64,000 nucleotides of DNA, from NCBI GenBank assembly GCA_902576415.1, contig CACGVZ010000003.1, positions 1 to 64,000 of the forward strand. The letters are read 5' to 3'. The DNA is from an uncultured Prochlorococcus sp. (lineage in GTDB: Bacteria; Cyanobacteriota; Cyanobacteriia; PCC-6307; Cyanobiaceae). Shown here one piece after another: positions 3,507 to 40,974 of this stretch; the first letter of the stretch is position 1, and every line of letters starts with the position of its first letter. The notes under the pieces were generated by a model that did not search any database, was not told the origin of the DNA, and saw only the letters and a list, made by a program, of their open reading frames with translations. The translations under genes and the position numbers were made by a program.

Positions 3507-5948
3507 ATGGATAAGAAAAACTTCACTTCTATCTCTCTACAAGACGAAATGCAACGCTCTTATTTGGAGTATGCAATGAGTGTAATAGTTGGCCGTGCTC
3601 TTCCAGATGCTAGAGACGGTCTTAAGCCTGTTCAAAGAAGAATACTATTTGCGATGCATGAATTAGGTTTAACTCCTGACAGACCATTTAGAAAGTGTGC
3701 AAGAGTTGTTGGAGATGTGCTTGGAAAGTACCATCCCCATGGGGATCAAGCAGTATATGACGCATTAGTAAGACTAGTGCAAAATTTTTCGACAAAATAT
3801 CCAACACTTGATGGACATGGAAATTTTGGATCTGTAGATAATGATCCAGCAGCTGCAATGAGATACACTGAGACAAGATTATCTCCCATAGCACAAAAAG
3901 CGTTTCTTGAAGAAATTGGATCAGAAACGGTTAATTTCTCTAATAACTTTGATGGTTCACAAAAAGAACCAGATTTCCTCCCAGCCCAACTTCCATTTTT
4001 ATTATTAAACGGATCATCAGGAATTGCAGTTGGGATGGCAACAAATATTCCTCCTCACAATCTTGGGGAAATAGTAGATAGTTTAATTGCTTTAGTAAAA
4101 AATAAAGATATTAGTAATAAAAAACTTACTAACATTATTAAAGGACCTGATTTTCCTACAGGCGGAGAATTAATTCATAGTAAAGCAATAGATGAACTTT
4201 ATGAAACAGGAAAAGGATCAGTAACAATTCGAGGCGTCATAAGTACAGAAGAAATAAATTTAGGGAAAGGTAAACATAAAAAAAATGCTTTAATTATTAC
4301 AGAACTTCCTTATCAAATCAGTAAAGCAGGTTGGATTGAAAAATTAGCAGAACTTGTTAATACAAACAAAATAAATGGTATTTCTGACATTAGGGATGAA
4401 AGCGATAGAGAAGGAATGAGAATTGTCATAGAGTTAAAAAAAGACGCAAATGCTGAACTTGTAATTTCTAATTTATATAAAAAAACAACTCTCCAAACGA
4501 ACTTTGGTGCAATATTTTTAGCTTTAGTTAAAGGCAAGCCTGTGCAACTAAACTTAAAACAATATCTCAGCTTTTTTCTTGAATTTAGAGAAGAAACAAT
4601 TAGAAAAAGAACTAATTATTTTCTAAAACATACTCTTGAAAAACTTGAAATATTAGAAGGTTTATCAAAGGCAACAAAAGATATAAAAAAAATTATCGAG
4701 GTTATTGAAGGCTCATCTAACTCTACAGAAGCTAAATCAAAATTGAGTAAAAATTTTTTCTTAAGTGAAAAACAAGCAAATTCAGTTTTGGATATGCCAT
4801 TAAAAAAATTAACAAATCTAGAAAAAAAACAAATAGATGATGATATTAAAAAATTACAAGAAAAAAAGAATTATCTTAAAAAACTATTGGATGAAAGAAA
4901 ATTATTGCTTGAGTTGTTAATAAATGAATTTTTATTATTAAAGAAAAATTATAGTGTCAAAAGAAAGACCAAACTTCTTAAGAATATAGATCAAAATCAA
5001 GAAATAGAAACAATTAATAATCAGATATTAGAGGAATTAATAAATAAAAAAACAAAATTACATATTGACAACAGAATATATTTAAAAAAAATGTTTTTCA
5101 ATAATTATAAAAAATCATTTGAGAATATAAATAAAATTATAGATAATAAAAATATTCAAAAATTTATTTGTAATGTTGATAAAAATTTAAAATTAATTGG
5201 GATCACATATACCGGAAAGGTTATTAACATAGATTGGGAGTCAAAAATTAATAATGACTATAAATTAGAAAATAAAAGTCTTGGGAATATTGATCCAAAT
5301 GAAATAATAAATTTTCATTCAATTAATAAAGGAATTAAAAACTATTTATGCATTTTAAATTCTGATGGGAGATTTAAAAAGGTTTTATTTGATAAGGATA
5401 TGATTAATAGTAATAGATCTTTCGCAATAACAAAATTAAAAAATAATCAAAAAGTAATTGACTCATTTATTGCTAACGAAGAAAAAAATTTAATAATATT
5501 AACTTCAATAGGAAGAATTTTTAAATTTAATTTATCTGATAAATTTTTAACTCCTACAACTAAACAATCTCAAGGATTAATGCTTGTAAAACTTTTGCCG
5601 ACTGAAATGATTGTTTCTTGTTGCCCATATCAAAATGAAGAAAATATTTATTTAATTTCAAAACAAGGTAGAATATATTGCTTAAATACAAGTGAAATTT
5701 ATTACGCCAATGAATACAATTTAGGGTACTTAAATGAAAGAATCCAGCTTAAAAAAGATTCCTTTCTAAAAGTCTTACCAAGTAAACATTTCCTTGATAT
5801 TGAAACTAATAAAAATAAATCTGCTAGGTTAAATATTGATAAATTAACTTTCAGAAATAATACAACAAATTTTTTAATTAACTTTTTAAATTTAGAGATA
5901 GGAGAACATCTTGAAAATTGTTTTAGTCTCAAAAACCTTCTTGACTAA
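3507..5948 (+). CDS. Type IIA topoisomerase subunit A (ParC/GyrA-like)
   Basis: This is the DNA breakage-reunion subunit of gyrase or topoisomerase IV. It opens with the [27 protein letters not shown] block. The catalytic tyrosine is Tyr120 in [10 protein letters not shown], followed by [13 protein letters not shown]. At 813 aa it has the right length. The Lys/Asn-rich C-terminal half (about 490-813) should form the beta-pinwheel, but I see no GyrA-box (QRRGGKG type) there, the element needed for DNA wrapping by gyrase. I therefore favour a topoisomerase IV (ParC)-like subunit or divergent second GyrA. Its stop overlaps the convergent purF stop by four bases. Confidence 0.92.
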
Positions 5949-9795: not shown

Positions 9796-10503
9796 TTAGA
9801 TCCAAGGGTCATCTTCTTTTTTATCACTGAAATTTCTTGATGTTATATCATCATTATAAAAACTATTTTGTTTAAAATCTAAATTTGGGTTTATATCTTC
9901 ATCTTCTTCCAACCAATCTTCTAATCTATTAGAAGCTTTATTTTTCATATCATCAAATCTATCAAAAATTTTTTTCCCTTTTTGCAAAAATTCATTTTTA
10001 ATACTTGATTTTATCAAAGGTAAATCTTCTAAAGAATTGCTTTCGCAAAATACTAAACCAGGTTGTTGATCATTAATATTTTCAATATTTAATTTCCATC
10101 TACTAGAGCCTGGAATCTTAGGATTAGATCGAGAAACTAAATAATAATAAATTTCACCTGTTTTCATATCAAATAAAAAATCTGCAATAAATCCTATTTT
10201 TGAACCATTTTTATTTATTAAATTAGCTTCGATTAAAGTTGGAAACCTATTTAAAGTAGCCAAATCAGAAATCGCTGGATCACCTTTAACATAAATTTCA
10301 TTATCTATTATTTGACTAATTTGATTTAATCGCCAAACATTTCTTCTTAAATCAAAATTTGAAGGACGAGAATACCATCCTAAAATACGATGAACAGGAG
10401 GATGCATCCATACATCTTCTCCTTTTCCATAGCTAAGAGTCATACTACCCTTGACATAATAATTTAATAATTCACTTAATAAAATTTCTTTAGGTAATTT
10501 CAA
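9796..10503 (-). CDS. PRC-barrel domain protein of unknown function
   Basis: A 235-aa soluble protein. Its centre (about residues 88-150) matches a PRC-barrel: a beta-rich block reading IGFIADFLFDMKTGEIYYYL. An earlier block near residues 10-60 may be a second copy. The tail (about 180-235) is acidic and low-complexity (DWLEEDEDINPN). PRC-barrels are small binding modules, as in RimM and photosystem H subunits, so the domain does not fix a function. It sits one base after dnaN and three before purL in the block leading away from the origin. Confidence 0.75.
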   Translation of the reverse strand: MKLPKEILLSELLNYYVKGSMTLSYGKGEDVWMHPPVHRILGWYSRPSNFDLRRNVWRLNQISQIIDNEIYVKGDPAISDLATLNRFPTLIEANLINKNGSKIGFIADFLFDMKTGEIYYYLVSRSNPKIPGSSRWKLNIENINDQQPGLVFCESNSLEDLPLIKSSIKNEFLQKGKKIFDRFDDMKNKASNRLEDWLEEDEDINPNLDFKQNSFYNDDITSRNFSDKKEDDPWI

Positions 10504-10504
10504 A

Positions 10505-11662
10505 TTAAGAACGAACCTGAACAGGCATGACTAAATAAGTAAAGGAATTAATATTATCTTGTGGTACAAAAACAGCAGGAGTCGTTGAAAGATTACATTT
10601 TAAAAGTACATTTTCAGAAGCAATAACTTTTAACCCCTCTAGAAGATATCTAACATTAAATGCAATATCAAAATCATCTCCAGAATAAGAAACAGGTATT
10701 GATTCATTTGCGTTCCCAATATCTTGAGCATCCGCACTTATTGAAGCTAACTCTGTATTATCTAATTTAATTTTAACAACACTGCTCTGTTGATCAGCTA
10801 AAACAGCGATTCTCTCTAATGCTTCAACAAATTTTTTAGTATTAAAATTAATTGTTTTAGAAAATGTGTCTGGTATTAATTGAGAATAATTTGGATAATT
10901 ACCTTCAAGTGTTCTTGTTGTAATTATTTGATTTGAAGAAATAAAAACTACTTGACCTTTATCGTAGAAAAGTTTAATTGAATTATCCGAGCTTTTTAAA
11001 GTCACTAATTTTTCAATTTCTCTTAGAGAACTAGTTGGAATTGTTACTGTTAAATCACTCTCATTAGAATAAAAATTCTGTTTATTTGCAATACTATCTT
11101 CATTACCAATTAAAGATACCGCTAATCTATGACCATCTGTTGATGCAGACTCTAGATAATTTTGTTTAAAAGTAAAATTAACTCCCGTAAGTAATTGCTT
11201 TGAATCGTCATTACTACTTGCAAAAATTGTTAATTTTAAAGCTCTCAAAAAAGAAGTAGGTTCAATATCTAAAGAAGTACCACTTTCAACAAATGGCAAT
11301 TTAGGATAATCATCTGATGGTATACCTTTAAGGTTAAAGGATCCTCTATCACTTTTTATTAAAATATTTTCTGATTCATGATCTACCTCTAGAGAAACAG
11401 GAGTTTCATTAGGTAATTTATTTACTATTTCAGATAATAGTTTTGAAGGTATAGTAATAGCCCCACTATTCTTAACAGTCCCATCAAAAGAAGTTTGAAT
11501 TCCTAAATTAAGATCAAATCCTGTCAAACTAATCTTATTTGTTCCTTGATCAGCTGTTAAAAGTATATTTGCAAGAATGGGATGTGTTGGTCTTGAAGCA
11601 ACAGCTTTACTTACTAGTTGAATAGCATTATTTAAATCATTTTGATTACAAATAATCTCCAT
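10505..11662 (-). CDS. dnaN: DNA polymerase III beta subunit (sliding clamp)
   Basis: The beta clamp tethers DNA polymerase III to the template. The 385-aa protein has the three-fold clamp layout: ILANILLTA and the GFDLNLGI region (domain 1), ESASTDGHRLAVS (domain 2, about residues 165-185) and a C-terminus ending YLVMPVQVRS, the canonical clamp ending. It starts at ATG 11662 beside the putative origin and is transcribed away from it. In Prochlorococcus genomes dnaN is conventionally the first gene. Confidence 0.98.
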   Translation of the reverse strand: MEIICNQNDLNNAIQLVSKAVASRPTHPILANILLTADQGTNKISLTGFDLNLGIQTSFDGTVKNSGAITIPSKLLSEIVNKLPNETPVSLEVDHESENILIKSDRGSFNLKGIPSDDYPKLPFVESGTSLDIEPTSFLRALKLTIFASSNDDSKQLLTGVNFTFKQNYLESASTDGHRLAVSLIGNEDSIANKQNFYSNESDLTVTIPTSSLREIEKLVTLKSSDNSIKLFYDKGQVVFISSNQIITTRTLEGNYPNYSQLIPDTFSKTINFNTKKFVEALERIAVLADQQSSVVKIKLDNTELASISADAQDIGNANESIPVSYSGDDFDIAFNVRYLLEGLKVIASENVLLKCNLSTTPAVFVPQDNINSFTYLVMPVQVRS

Positions 11663-11772
11663 CGGGCTTTGGATCTTTTTTACACATTCAATATACTTTT
11701 TTCGTTAATTAAATTCAATAACTTAATTTACTCTTTATTTCTAATATAAAAATTCATTAAAAATAAAAAGAA

Positions 11773-11784
11773 TAGTAGTAGTAG
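11773..11784 (+). promoter_or_regulatory. Candidate DnaA-trio element (four TAG triplets)
   Basis: Four consecutive TAG triplets stand four bases to the left of a tandem DnaA-box pair. DnaA-trios, defined in Bacillus as repeating 3'-GAT-5', are the single-stranded sites onto which DnaA extends from adjacent boxes during melting. Polarity is right here: the 3' end of the trio strand faces the boxes, and the AT-rich tract lies on the far side. Function is inferred from this arrangement. Confidence 0.55.
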
Positions 11785-11788
11785 GTTT

Positions 11789-11806
11789 TGTGGAAATTGT
11801 GGAAAA
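11789..11806 (-). promoter_or_regulatory. Abutting pair of DnaA boxes
   Basis: TGTGGAAAT and TGTGGAAAA follow one another with no spacer, both in minus orientation. The second is a perfect reverse complement of TTTTCCACA, and the first differs at one end base. A direct tandem next to the TAG trios is the expected geometry for starting a DnaA filament. Confidence 0.75.
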
Positions 11807-11869
11807 TAAAACTTTAGATCCTTATTTACTTTTTTTATATAGATTTAGATAGGTGGAAAAATTTTATTA

Positions 11870-11920
11870 TTTGTTGAATAATTTTTTCTTTTTTCAGAAA
11901 ACTTGAATTTATTCAACAAA
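11870..11920. repeat. 12-bp inverted repeat of variant DnaA boxes in oriC
   Basis: TTTGTTGAATAA at 11870-11881 and its exact complement TTATTCAACAAA at 11909-11920 flank a 27-base spacer. Each arm contains a TATTCAACA-type 9-mer, one base from the TTTTCAACA that recurs at 11941-11949. These look like low-affinity DnaA boxes in opposite orientations, though another origin-binding protein cannot be excluded. Confidence 0.55.
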
Positions 11921-11999
11921 ATAAATAACTTTCCTTGAATTTTTCAACAAATAAAACTTCCTTTTAATTGATTTCCACAGACACTAATTTTTTTGGATT

Positions 12000-13103
12000 C
12001 TAATATCCTAAAATTTTAGTTATATTTTTTAGTGAAGGTTCAACATTTTTCCTGAAAATTGCATCATTATTTTTAATCGCACAATCAGGGTCTTTTAATC
12101 CATTACCTGTAAGAACGCAAACAATAGTTGATTCTTTTTGAATTCTATTTTTATTTTTAATGAGTCCGGCAACAGATGCTGCACTAGCTGGCTCACAAAA
12201 AACACCTTCCTTGGCCAGAATTTTATAAGCATCAATTATTTCTTCATCTGTAACTGACTGAAAGTCTCCTTTACTTTCCTTTCTTACCATTTTTGCTTTT
12301 TCTCTATTAACTGGATTTCCAATTCTGATTGCAGTTGCAATTGTTTCTGGATTATTAACTATAATATTTTTTACTAAAGGAGCAGATCCTTCAGATTGAA
12401 AACCCACCATAATTGGTAATTTTAAATTTCTTTTTATTTTTGAATACTCTTTGAAACCCATCCAATAAGCGGTTATGTTCCCTGCATTTCCCATTGGAAT
12501 ACAAAGCCAATCAGGTGCAAAACCTAAGTCATCAACTATTTCAAAAGCTGCTGTTTTTTGTCCTTGTATGCGATATGGATTAACAGAATTAACAAGTTCT
12601 ATTGGATGTTCAGCTGATAAATCTCTTACTATTTCAAGAGCCTTATCAAAGTTTCCATTAATAGATATTATCTCTGCTCCATACATTAAAGCTTGTGCAA
12701 GTTTCCCTTGTGCAACAAATCCTTCAGGGATTAAAACATAAGGTTTTAATCCTCCTCTAGAAGCATATGCAGCAGCAGCAGCAGAAGTATTGCCAGTACT
12801 TGCACAAATTACAGCTTCACGCCCATCCTCTTTTGCTTTGCTTATGGCCATCGTCATTCCCCGATCTTTAAAAGATCCTGTGGGGTTTAGTCCATCATAT
12901 TTAAGAAAAACTTTTGTACCATTTCCTACTAATTTGCTAATTGTGTTACTAAAAATTAGAGGAGTATTTCCTTCATTTAGTGAGATGATGGGAGTTTTTT
13001 TGGTAACTGGAAGATATTGTTTATAAGCCTCGATTAGACCTGGCCATCTTTTTTTTCTGTAATTGATACCTAATTTATTCTTAATTTTATTTAAAAACAC
13101 CAT
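12000..13103 (-). CDS. thrC: Threonine synthase
   Basis: ThrC is a PLP enzyme that converts O-phosphohomoserine to threonine. At 367 aa it is the short bacterial form. The PLP lysine is Lys79 in [11 protein letters not shown], and the phosphate-binding glycine loop is [13 protein letters not shown]. An early LNEGNTPL motif is also typical. It starts at ATG 13103, six bases after the DUF1400 gene stop, and ends at the edge of the origin, reading toward it. Confidence 0.97.
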
Positions 13104-39691: not shown

Positions 39692-40974
39692 TAAAATACT
39701 TTTGATTTTTGTTCGTTCAAAGAATTATTATTTTTACCCTCTGCAATAAGGTATATCATGAAAATTAAGATAATGGAACCAGCTATAAAGGGAGATTTAG
39801 GGCCAAAACTATCATAAACCCTCCCAGCCATTGCAATTCCTAAAACCCCTCCCAGACTTTGTAGGCCTTGAAGGTTACTTAGTATCGATCCTTGTTTATC
39901 AACGTCCAGTTTCTTTGATATAAGTGCTCTTAAGGTAGGCGTAATTAATCCTGCCCCAATAGCTAAAAATGAAACAGCTGAATAAATATTAACTATCGCA
40001 TTTTCTTTTGGAGCAGTTATTAAAAGTGAACATGCTACAAGAATGAAGCCTGATCCAATTAGAGTTAATCTCATTTCGCCAAATTGCTTTACCAGAGGTC
40101 CAATGAGTCCTCCCTGTACAATAATTGCAATAATTCCTACTACTACAAGAGTCCCGCTTGATGCTTTGGTTGTCCAATTTAAAGACTCTTGAAGGAAAAA
40201 TATCAGGATATTGGTCAATCCAGTAAAAGCAATAAAGTAAATAAAAAAAGCTAATGATAATTTTTTAATTTTTTCTTCTTTGAAAACTTTAAATAGCTCT
40301 TTTAAAGGATTTTTTAAAAAAGTTCTTGATTTATTAGAGGCATTATTAGGTTTCGTTTCCGGTAAGTAAAAAAATACTAGGAGAAAATTTATTATTGGAA
40401 TTATAGAGGCTATCAAAACTGGAATGATAAAGTTGTTATTTGTATTTTTTGCAAAAATTACAACAAAAATATTTCCTAAGAAAAAACTTAAACCAAAAGC
40501 TACACCAATAAGACCAAATGTCTTTGCTCTTTTTTCAGGGCTTGAAATATCTGCAAGAATAGTTGTTGCAGTAGCTGCAGTTCCGCCACTTAAGCCGTCA
40601 ATTAGTCTCGCAAGGAATAATAAAAATAATGGGATATAAGCTATTGAATTTGACCAGTTAAAAAGAACCGTAAAAGATAGTATTGATATTCCTATTACGG
40701 AACCAGTAATACAAAAAAGAGTCACAGGCCTTCTTCCATATCTATCACTCATAAGTCCTATAAAAGGAGAAGCTGTAAATTGTGCTAATTGGTAAGTGCA
40801 AGATAATAAGCCATATGTACTAGCTTTGGAGTCAAAAAGTAAAACAAAAGAGGGTAAAATAGGTAAAAGTATACTTTCACTTAAACGATCGTTTAGAAGA
40901 GTGATAAAAGCGCTAAGAAGAGTAAATTTTTTATTTGGTTTCAATAAACTTTCTTTCACAATATTTACCTTCAT
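39691..40974 (-). CDS. MFS transporter
   Basis: A 427-aa major facilitator with twelve predicted helices. The loop 2-3 motif GLMSDRYGRRPVTL (about residues 77-90) is the classic MFS signature, and a second copy is weaker in the C-terminal half. The helix 4-5 region GLSGGTAATATTILADISSPEKRAKTFG resembles drug/H+ antiporters of the TetA type. Substrate cannot be assigned. The stop overlaps the ppk start by one base, so they are probably cotranscribed. It is divergent from cobA, with only about 30 bases between. Confidence 0.88.
   Translation of the reverse strand: MKVNIVKESLLKPNKKFTLLSAFITLLNDRLSESILLPILPSFVLLFDSKASTYGLLSCTYQLAQFTASPFIGLMSDRYGRRPVTLFCITGSVIGISILSFTVLFNWSNSIAYIPLFLLFLARLIDGLSGGTAATATTILADISSPEKRAKTFGLIGVAFGLSFFLGNIFVVIFAKNTNNNFIIPVLIASIIPIINFLLVFFYLPETKPNNASNKSRTFLKNPLKELFKVFKEEKIKKLSLAFFIYFIAFTGLTNILIFFLQESLNWTTKASSGTLVVVGIIAIIVQGGLIGPLVKQFGEMRLTLIGSGFILVACSLLITAPKENAIVNIYSAVSFLAIGAGLITPTLRALISKKLDVDKQGSILSNLQGLQSLGGVLGIAMAGRVYDSFGPKSPFIAGSIILIFMIYLIAEGKNNNSLNEQKSKVF

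What the first reader, a model, noticed from the sequence alone, without database searches (positions are those of the whole stretch)
11773..11806. DnaA-trio array next to a tandem DnaA-box pair: a basal unwinding module
Four TAG triplets (11773-11784) stand four bases from two abutting DnaA boxes (11789-11806), with an AT-rich tract on the far side toward dnaN. Polarity agrees with the Bacillus DnaA-trio model: the trio strand has its 3' end at the boxes. This predicts that melting starts at about 11700-11785 and gives an explicit origin design for Prochlorococcus.
Basis: partly seen in the sequence, partly recalled or inferred. Interest (0 to 1): 0.7.

Follow-up and report, generated by a model that had tools for sequence, protein, structure and literature searches.

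The report
Prochlorococcus origin-opening DnaA-trio module
Next to the dnaN gene of this Prochlorococcus genome four TAG triplets lie four bases from two abutting DnaA boxes, an arrangement conserved in its relatives and predicted to be where the DnaA protein opens the chromosome to start DNA replication; the opening system is of a known kind, but in higher-GC relatives many of these triplets carry C instead of A at the middle, a swap that experiments in Bacillus suggest would likely still work.

Summary
In detail: TAG x4 at 11773-11784, a 4-nt spacer, then two abutting cyanobacterial-type DnaA boxes at 11789-11806, in the dnaN-thrC gap; more than chance. The module is in 58 of 59 genus loci, window included, in 77 of 80 loci of other genera of the family by score and in 14 of 20 class loci. 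Sampled skew of one complete relative switches near dnaN, not near dnaA. This fits a DnaA-trio basal unwinding system (BUS), already shown in vitro for Synechococcus elongatus (PMC8287927): a new member of a known kind. Relatives add something less expected: the four triplets next to the boxes have the form N[A/C]G (312 of 316 end in G, 308 of 316 have A or C in the middle). C-centred triplets obey the amino-group rule found for B. subtilis DnaA (PMC10721633) but are not counted by the published BUS search. Genomes whose DnaA carries N187S/R202K are the only ones in the genus sample seen with T- or G-centred triplets. DnaA binding, melting and origin activity are untested.

The parts
11773..11784 (+). 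Four DnaA-trios (TAG x4; trio 1 = 11782-11784, next to the boxes)
   Evidence: trio 1 TAG in 58 of 58 genus loci with the module, trio 2 TAG in 57 of 58
11785..11788 (+). 4-nt spacer (GTTT); often GGGC or GGCC in other genera, AT-rich in the genus, length kept
   Evidence: that scoring assumes 4 nt; the alignment and the sequences show it without the assumption
11789..11797 (-). DnaA box A (ATTTCCACA read on the minus strand)
   Evidence: core TGTGG in 47 of 58 genus loci
11798..11806 (-). DnaA box B (TTTTCCACA, cyanobacterial consensus), 13 nt from the trios
   Evidence: core TGTGG in 55 of 58 genus loci
11719..11772 (.). AT-rich tract predicted to melt, between trios and dnaN promoter-like site
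   Evidence: 50-bp duplexes starting at 11720 and 11735 are among the 0.3% least stable of the 64 kb
11690..11718 (-). Promoter-like site of dnaN: TTGAAT-17-TATATT
   Evidence: 3 sites found in the stretch, 3.3 expected in shuffles; block AATATAC...TTCAAT kept in 28 of 40 aligned rows, counted by eye
11852..11860 (-). DnaA box C (TTTTCCACC), weaker
   Evidence: core CCACN in 29 of 38; its commonest 5-mer (18 of 38) does not exceed the 90th percentile (0.61) of neighbouring columns
11872..11880 (-). Weak box D (TATTCAACA on the minus strand)
   Evidence: the counts for it are two bases out of register
11910..11918 (+). Weak box E (TATTCAACA)
   Evidence: one search counted it one base out of register
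11941..11949 (+). Weak box F (TTTTCAACA)
   Evidence: core CAACA in 33 of 38 aligned loci
11971..11979 (+). DnaA box G (ATTTCCACA), distal, opposite orientation
   Evidence: core CCACA in 37 of 38 aligned loci
10505..11662 (-). dnaN (beta clamp)
   Evidence: TIGR00663, 328.6 bits
12000..13103 (-). thrC (threonine synthase), other border of the gap
   Evidence: TIGR00260, 318.9 bits

Best explanation
Four TAG triplets and two abutting DnaA boxes, four bases apart in the dnaN-thrC gap and conserved there in relatives, form a module that likely acts as the basal unwinding system of the chromosome origin. Inferred steps, by homology to B. subtilis: DnaA bound to boxes A and B passes further DnaA subunits onto the + strand across the 4-nt spacer; each pair of neighbouring subunits captures the 3'-GA-5' of one TAG; the strand is stretched and the duplex melts leftward from about 11784 into the AT-rich tract, where the helicase would be loaded. 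Boxes C-G would feed or regulate this assembly. Shown here: the sequence, its conservation, its fixed spacing, a skew switch near dnaN in one relative, and the trio-contact residues in DnaA. Not shown: DnaA binding, melting, origin activity.
For: Array, spacer and boxes read directly, improbable by chance. Conserved beside a drifting stretch (mean information 1.47-1.66 bits over 11770-11799 against 0.44-0.78 over 11810-11849). Present in 58 of 59 genus loci including the window, 103-127 bp from dnaN; trio 1 is TAG in 78 of 78 usable named loci; shuffled loci never scored above 18 in the genus, named and class sets and reached 20 in one of 800 family shuffles. Family: 77 of 80 score 18 or more. 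Triplet 4, not used for placing the motif, ends in G in 78 of 79 and has A or C in the middle in 77 of 79. Skew switch near dnaN, dnaA elsewhere. DnaA of this genome has E, N, I, I, R, K, E, E, R at B. subtilis E183, N187, I190, I193, R202, K222, E223, E228, R264; of the ten positions checked only N196 differs (D). The one family genome of 80 without the module, G211, is also the only one of 34 family genomes searched without a DnaA match.
Against: No experiment on this organism was seen. Skew was sampled in one relative over 47% of its chromosome at about 40-kb resolution, and inside the window no switch is visible at 11.7 kb. The dnaN promoter-like block and box G are as well conserved as the module (1.27-1.62 bits over 11690-11719, 1.67 at 11970-11979), so conservation alone does not single it out. 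The least stable DNA of the window lies near 5.1 kb, not in the gap. At class level 6 of 20 loci lack the trios although DnaA is present, and so do 8 of 17 further genomes with DnaA, so DnaA does not imply this module at dnaN. G081 has DnaA but no module in the fetched stretch. G211 is 95% complete, so its missing dnaA could be an assembly gap.
Confidence: 0.86

Rival explanations
1. The boxes are mainly a DnaA regulatory site for the dnaN promoter and the triplets are a passenger; the origin lies elsewhere.
For: A promoter-like site lies about 55 bp away at 11690-11718 and is strongly conserved in 28 of 40 rows. DnaA-boxes outside oriC regulate transcription in bacteria (PMC7198777, passage).
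Against: Triplets kept in register where the promoter block has changed (rows L029-L041); skew switch near dnaN in one relative; further conserved boxes F and G in the gap; S. elongatus has its origin near dnaN (PMC7198777, passages).
Confidence: 0.07
2. The TAG run is a microsatellite that happens to sit by DnaA boxes.
For: TAGTAGTAG occurs 17 times in the genome; one genus locus of 58 has a fifth TAG (G182).
Against: TAG at triplet 5 in 1 of 58 genus loci, so length hardly varies; in the family the 3' G stays (312 of 316) while the other two bases change; the register to the boxes is kept across genera.
Confidence: 0.02
3. The boxes are the origin but melting uses the AT-rich tract as a plain unwinding element, without trio-specific base capture.
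For: The tract 11690-11772 is among the least stable DNA of the window.
Against: Pattern N[A/C]G with the 3' G lost after four triplets; S. elongatus DnaA needs its trios in vitro (PMC8287927, section 14).
Confidence: 0.05

Closest known systems
Basal unwinding system (BUS) of Bacillus subtilis oriC (DnaA-box #6/#7, spacer, DnaA-trios)
   Same: Two adjacent DnaA boxes, short spacer, repeated 3'-GAT-5' on the strand whose 3' end faces the boxes; here too the distal box is the one nearer the consensus
   Different: Box type TTTTCCACA; four TAGs against six trios engaged in the B. subtilis structure (PMC10721633, section 9); spacer GTTT, not GC-rich; gap between dnaN and thrC, with dnaA far away in relative G182
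BUS of Synechococcus elongatus (PMC8287927, tested in vitro)
   Same: A cyanobacterium with TTTTCCACA boxes (PMC4674748, passage); unnamed class loci show TAG arrays next to GGCC-like spacers and tandem boxes
   Different: Its own sequence was not compared: S. elongatus could not be picked out among the unnamed loci; Prochlorococcus has an AT-rich spacer and weaker outer boxes than many class loci
Helicobacter pylori oriC2 unwinding element (GC-rich sequence, DnaA-trio, AT-rich region)
   Same: Same order of submodules
   Different: GC-rich spacer there; changing it did not significantly affect unwinding (PMC8235120, passages), which fits its loss here

Membership tests
DnaA-trio basal unwinding system (BUS) | At least three trinucleotides with middle A within 16 bp of a DnaA box (search rule of PMC8287927, section 13) | tested here: met
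   Four TAG, 4 nt from box A and 13 nt from box B; by this loose rule GAA and AAA (triplets 5, 6) would extend the run
DnaA-trio basal unwinding system (BUS) | 3' end of the trio strand faces the boxes | tested here: met
   + strand 5'-TAG x4-GTTT-box-box-3'
DnaA-trio basal unwinding system (BUS) | Located at the chromosome origin | tested here: inconclusive
   Skew switch within roughly 70 kb of dnaN in one sampled relative; published work put Prochlorococcus origins between the beta-clamp and threonine synthase genes (PMC2836286, passage). No marker-frequency data here
DnaA-trio basal unwinding system (BUS) | DnaA with base-capture residues (B. subtilis N187, I190, I193, R202, E228) | tested here: met
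   All five identical in this genome; S/K at N187/R202 in 20 of the 25 genomes with DnaA, chosen for divergence
DnaA-trio basal unwinding system (BUS) | DnaA-dependent strand separation that needs boxes and trios | not testable with these tools
   Needs purified protein and labelled scaffolds
DnaA-trio basal unwinding system (BUS) | GC-rich spacer between box and trios (usual, not required) | tested here: not met
   GTTT here; AT-rich in most of the genus set, GGGC or GGCC in 14 of 40 family loci

The most novel reading that the evidence does not exclude
Picocyanobacteria carry a natural mutagenesis record of the DnaA-trio code: four triplets of form N-M-G (M = A or C), where GC-rich lineages exchanged the supposedly conserved middle adenine for cytosine, the other base with the amino group that DnaA Asn187 reads; and one divergent Prochlorococcus group rewrote the reading pocket itself (N187S, R202K) and then relaxed the amino rule at triplet 3. 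DnaA and its origin would thus be co-evolving partners with a readable code and a four-triplet ruler.
Probability: 0.45. Interest if true: 0.75.

Novelty: new member of a known kind. Interest (0 to 1): 0.5.

Why it matters
Prochlorococcus is among the most abundant photosynthetic organisms (general knowledge). In the papers I saw, its origin was placed by skew, neighbouring genes and boxes; a defined module gives a 45-bp test substrate. The wider comparison makes a structural claim testable by evolution: if DnaA reads the amino group of the middle base, C-centred triplets should work in nature, and the published search rule (middle A only) would miss part of the arrays in GC-rich cyanobacteria. 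The N187S/R202K genomes offer a natural change of the reading pocket.

Tried and rejected
Genome-wide scan of the class with TARTAGNNNNTGKGGA: too loose for genomes of several Mb (its reversed control also hits most of them), so it was not used to score presence. Skew inside the window: uninformative at this scale. The coding-strand proxy gave its best split at 1,065,276 to 426,111, near the GC split, but other splits scored nearly as well. Box D and E counts were out of register by two bases and one base; read instead. A claim that box B is always the better conserved box: holds in the genus (core TGTGG in 55 against 47 of 58) but not in the first 40 family loci (mean matches 6.85 for B, 7.15 for A), so it is not made. 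A claim that the array ends absolutely at four: by the 3' G it does (G at triplet 5 in 2 of 77 family loci), but a middle A goes on in 55 of 77, so under the loose NAN rule it runs on into A-rich DNA. Loss of dnaA with loss of the module: of 5 genomes without a DnaA match that have a dnaN locus (G211, G436, G442, G518, G525) none shows the module, but 8 of 17 newly examined genomes with DnaA lack it too (handles chosen by me, partly as relatives of failures), so outside the family this is only suggestive. What was sampled: 60 of 151 genus hits, 80 of 112 other-genus hits and 20 of the 70 other-family genomes were fetched, chosen by me for spread and for upstream DNA on the contig. Rows dropped: L037 (132 bp) and L019 (contig begins inside box A, TAG x4 present) before the genus counts; 2 of 80 named loci with under 150 bp upstream; L063, L291, L311 (score under 18) before the per-triplet table, and L063 alone before that. 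The cut of 18 lies at the top of the shuffled range (maximum 18-20). The motif finder rewards TAG in triplets 1-3, so only counts for triplet 4 and beyond are free of that bias.

Full report
WHAT IS THERE. The + strand reads 5'-TAGTAGTAGTAG-GTTT-TGTGGAAAT-TGTGGAAAA-3' at 11773-11806, in the 337-bp gap between dnaN (10505-11662, minus) and thrC (12000-13103, minus). The named relatives found are Prochlorococcus single-cell genomes and strains, with a few labelled Synechococcaceae (90% dnaN identity to AG-388-A01; MIT 9107, 9302 and 9314 also present). TTTTCCACA is the published cyanobacterial box (PMC4674748 and PMC6323995, passages); box B is that box, box A differs at one end base.

CHANCE. 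With up to 3 mismatches the 21-base pattern is expected 0.05 times per 64 kb; the exact copy is at 11773 and one copy with 3 mismatches lies at 40128. TAGTAGTAG alone is not rare (17 in the genome). TAGTAGNNNNTGTGGAA was found in 29 of 50 genus genomes, once in each; its reversed control was found once in each of 4.

CONSERVATION IN THE GENUS. In an alignment of 40 loci the module holds (1.47-1.66 bits per base over 11770-11799) while the neighbouring 11810-11849 does not (0.44-0.78). The dnaN promoter-like block (1.27-1.62 over 11690-11719) and box G (1.67) are conserved as well. In 59 loci including the window 58 have the module; triplet 1 is TAG in 58 of 58, triplet 2 in 57, triplet 3 in 50, triplet 4 in 53, triplet 5 in 1. 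Its distance from dnaN is 103-127 bp. The named set (78 of 80 loci usable, overlapping the unnamed set) gives TAG at triplet 1 in 78 of 78. With 20 dinucleotide shuffles per locus no genus, named or class shuffle scored above 18 and one of 800 family shuffles reached 20.

CONSERVATION BEYOND. Across 80 loci of other genera of the family (32 genera by the tool's labels), 77 score 18 or more and two of the three others keep triplets and spacer; the third, G211, has no module. The four triplets next to the boxes have the form N[A/C]G: 3' base G in 312 of 316, middle base A 192, C 116, G 4, T 4 (79 loci). Departures from A are thus C in 116 of 124, while C makes up 24.6% of the surrounding bases, G 27.1%, T 22.0%. 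Of 17 genus-by-position cases with more than one middle base, 14 are A/C only. Loci are related, so these are not independent events, and triplets 1-3 carry the bias of the finder; triplet 4 does not (78 of 79 G; 77 of 79 A or C). At triplet 5 the 3' G is gone (2 of 77) but a middle A is still common (55 of 77) because the DNA there is A-rich. In the wider class 14 of 20 loci show TAG triplets by a spacer, GGCC- or GGGC-like in most, and adjoining boxes.

ORIGIN. Forty 20-kb samples (47%) of the 1,704,447-bp chromosome of relative G182 put the cumulative G-C minimum at about 1.085-1.108 Mb and the T-A minimum at about 1.128-1.145 Mb; dnaN is at 1.154 Mb; dnaA, at the record's start, lies inside one arm. 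Published skew work also put Prochlorococcus origins between the beta-clamp gene and threonine synthase (PMC2836286, passage), and the S. elongatus origin near dnaN (PMC7198777, passages).

MECHANISM. The B. subtilis structure shows that the 3' G and the middle base of each trio are captured between neighbouring DnaA subunits (PMC10721633, sections 9 and 10). This genome's DnaA has the same residue at E183, N187, I190, I193, R202, K222, E223, E228 and R264, with D for N196; 30 family DnaA loci show the same residues at the eight positions tabulated. Same paper: C in the middle separated strands about as well as A in vitro and supported growth better than G or T in vivo, which its authors explain by the amino group. 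The family pattern agrees. The BUS search required NAN (PMC8287927, section 13), so TCG/CCG triplets were not counted; that paper itself suspected deviant trios (section 14). DoriC notes that A or T in the box tends to become G or C in GC-rich cyanobacteria (PMC6323995, passage); the triplets appear to follow the same trend. Searches for DnaA-trio with Prochlorococcus (0 papers), with cyanobacter (5 papers) and with cytosine (8 papers): I looked inside five of those papers (PMC8287927, PMC10721633, PMC8235120, PMC6323995, PMC10225481; sections or passages) and saw no report of natural C-centred trios; the rest I saw only as listings, and supplements and closed papers not at all.

A CHANGED POCKET. 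Of the 25 genus genomes with DnaA (30 searched, chosen for divergence), 20 have S at N187 and K at R202. T- or G-centred triplets (TTG twice, TGG, TTA, all triplet 3) occur in 4 of the 19 such genomes with the module, in none of the other 39 genus loci with it, most of whose DnaA was not examined, and in none of the 78 named loci. The four may be close kin; a lead only.

MELTING. Fifty-bp duplexes starting at 11720 and 11735 are in the top 0.3% of instability of the 64 kb and the least stable 50-mer of the gap starts at 11705, but the window's least stable stretch is near 5.1 kb. The tract adjoins the dnaN promoter-like site, so opening and dnaN transcription may interact (inference).

VERDICT. 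The fresh part is the N[A/C]G rule over four triplets and the S/K pocket. Papers: PMC8287927 outline, passages, sections 9, 13, 14; PMC10721633 passages, sections 9, 10; PMC7198777 abstract and passages; PMC6669920, PMC2836286, PMC4674748, PMC8235120, PMC6323995, PMC10225481 passages.

Noticed in passing
G211 (L063, L373), other genus of the same family: Picocyanobacterial genome (95% complete) with no DnaA match and no trio-box module upstream of dnaN; thrC-like sequence lies close by eye. Possible natural loss of DnaA-dependent initiation, or an assembly gap.
   Followed up: partly
G008, G010, G015, G022, G025 and 15 further genus genomes: DnaA with N187S and R202K, two residues that contact captured trio bases in B. 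subtilis.
   Followed up: partly
G430, G436, G442, G518, G525 (class): No DnaA C-terminal domain found in near-complete cyanobacterial genomes; G430 also gave no dnaN match. dnaA-less cyanobacteria are published (PMC7198777, abstract).
   Followed up: partly
window 11690-11718: dnaN promoter-like site, kept in 28 of 40 aligned genus loci by eye and different in the more divergent rows (L029-L041).
   Followed up: partly
window 9796-10503: 235-aa ORF directly downstream of dnaN with no NCBIfam family.
   Followed up: no
window 5075-5175: Least stable duplex of the 64 kb, outside the origin.
   Followed up: no
G081:C30 (L239): dnaN open frame of 624 aa and no module upstream, though DnaA is present; perhaps a misassembled short contig.
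   Followed up: no
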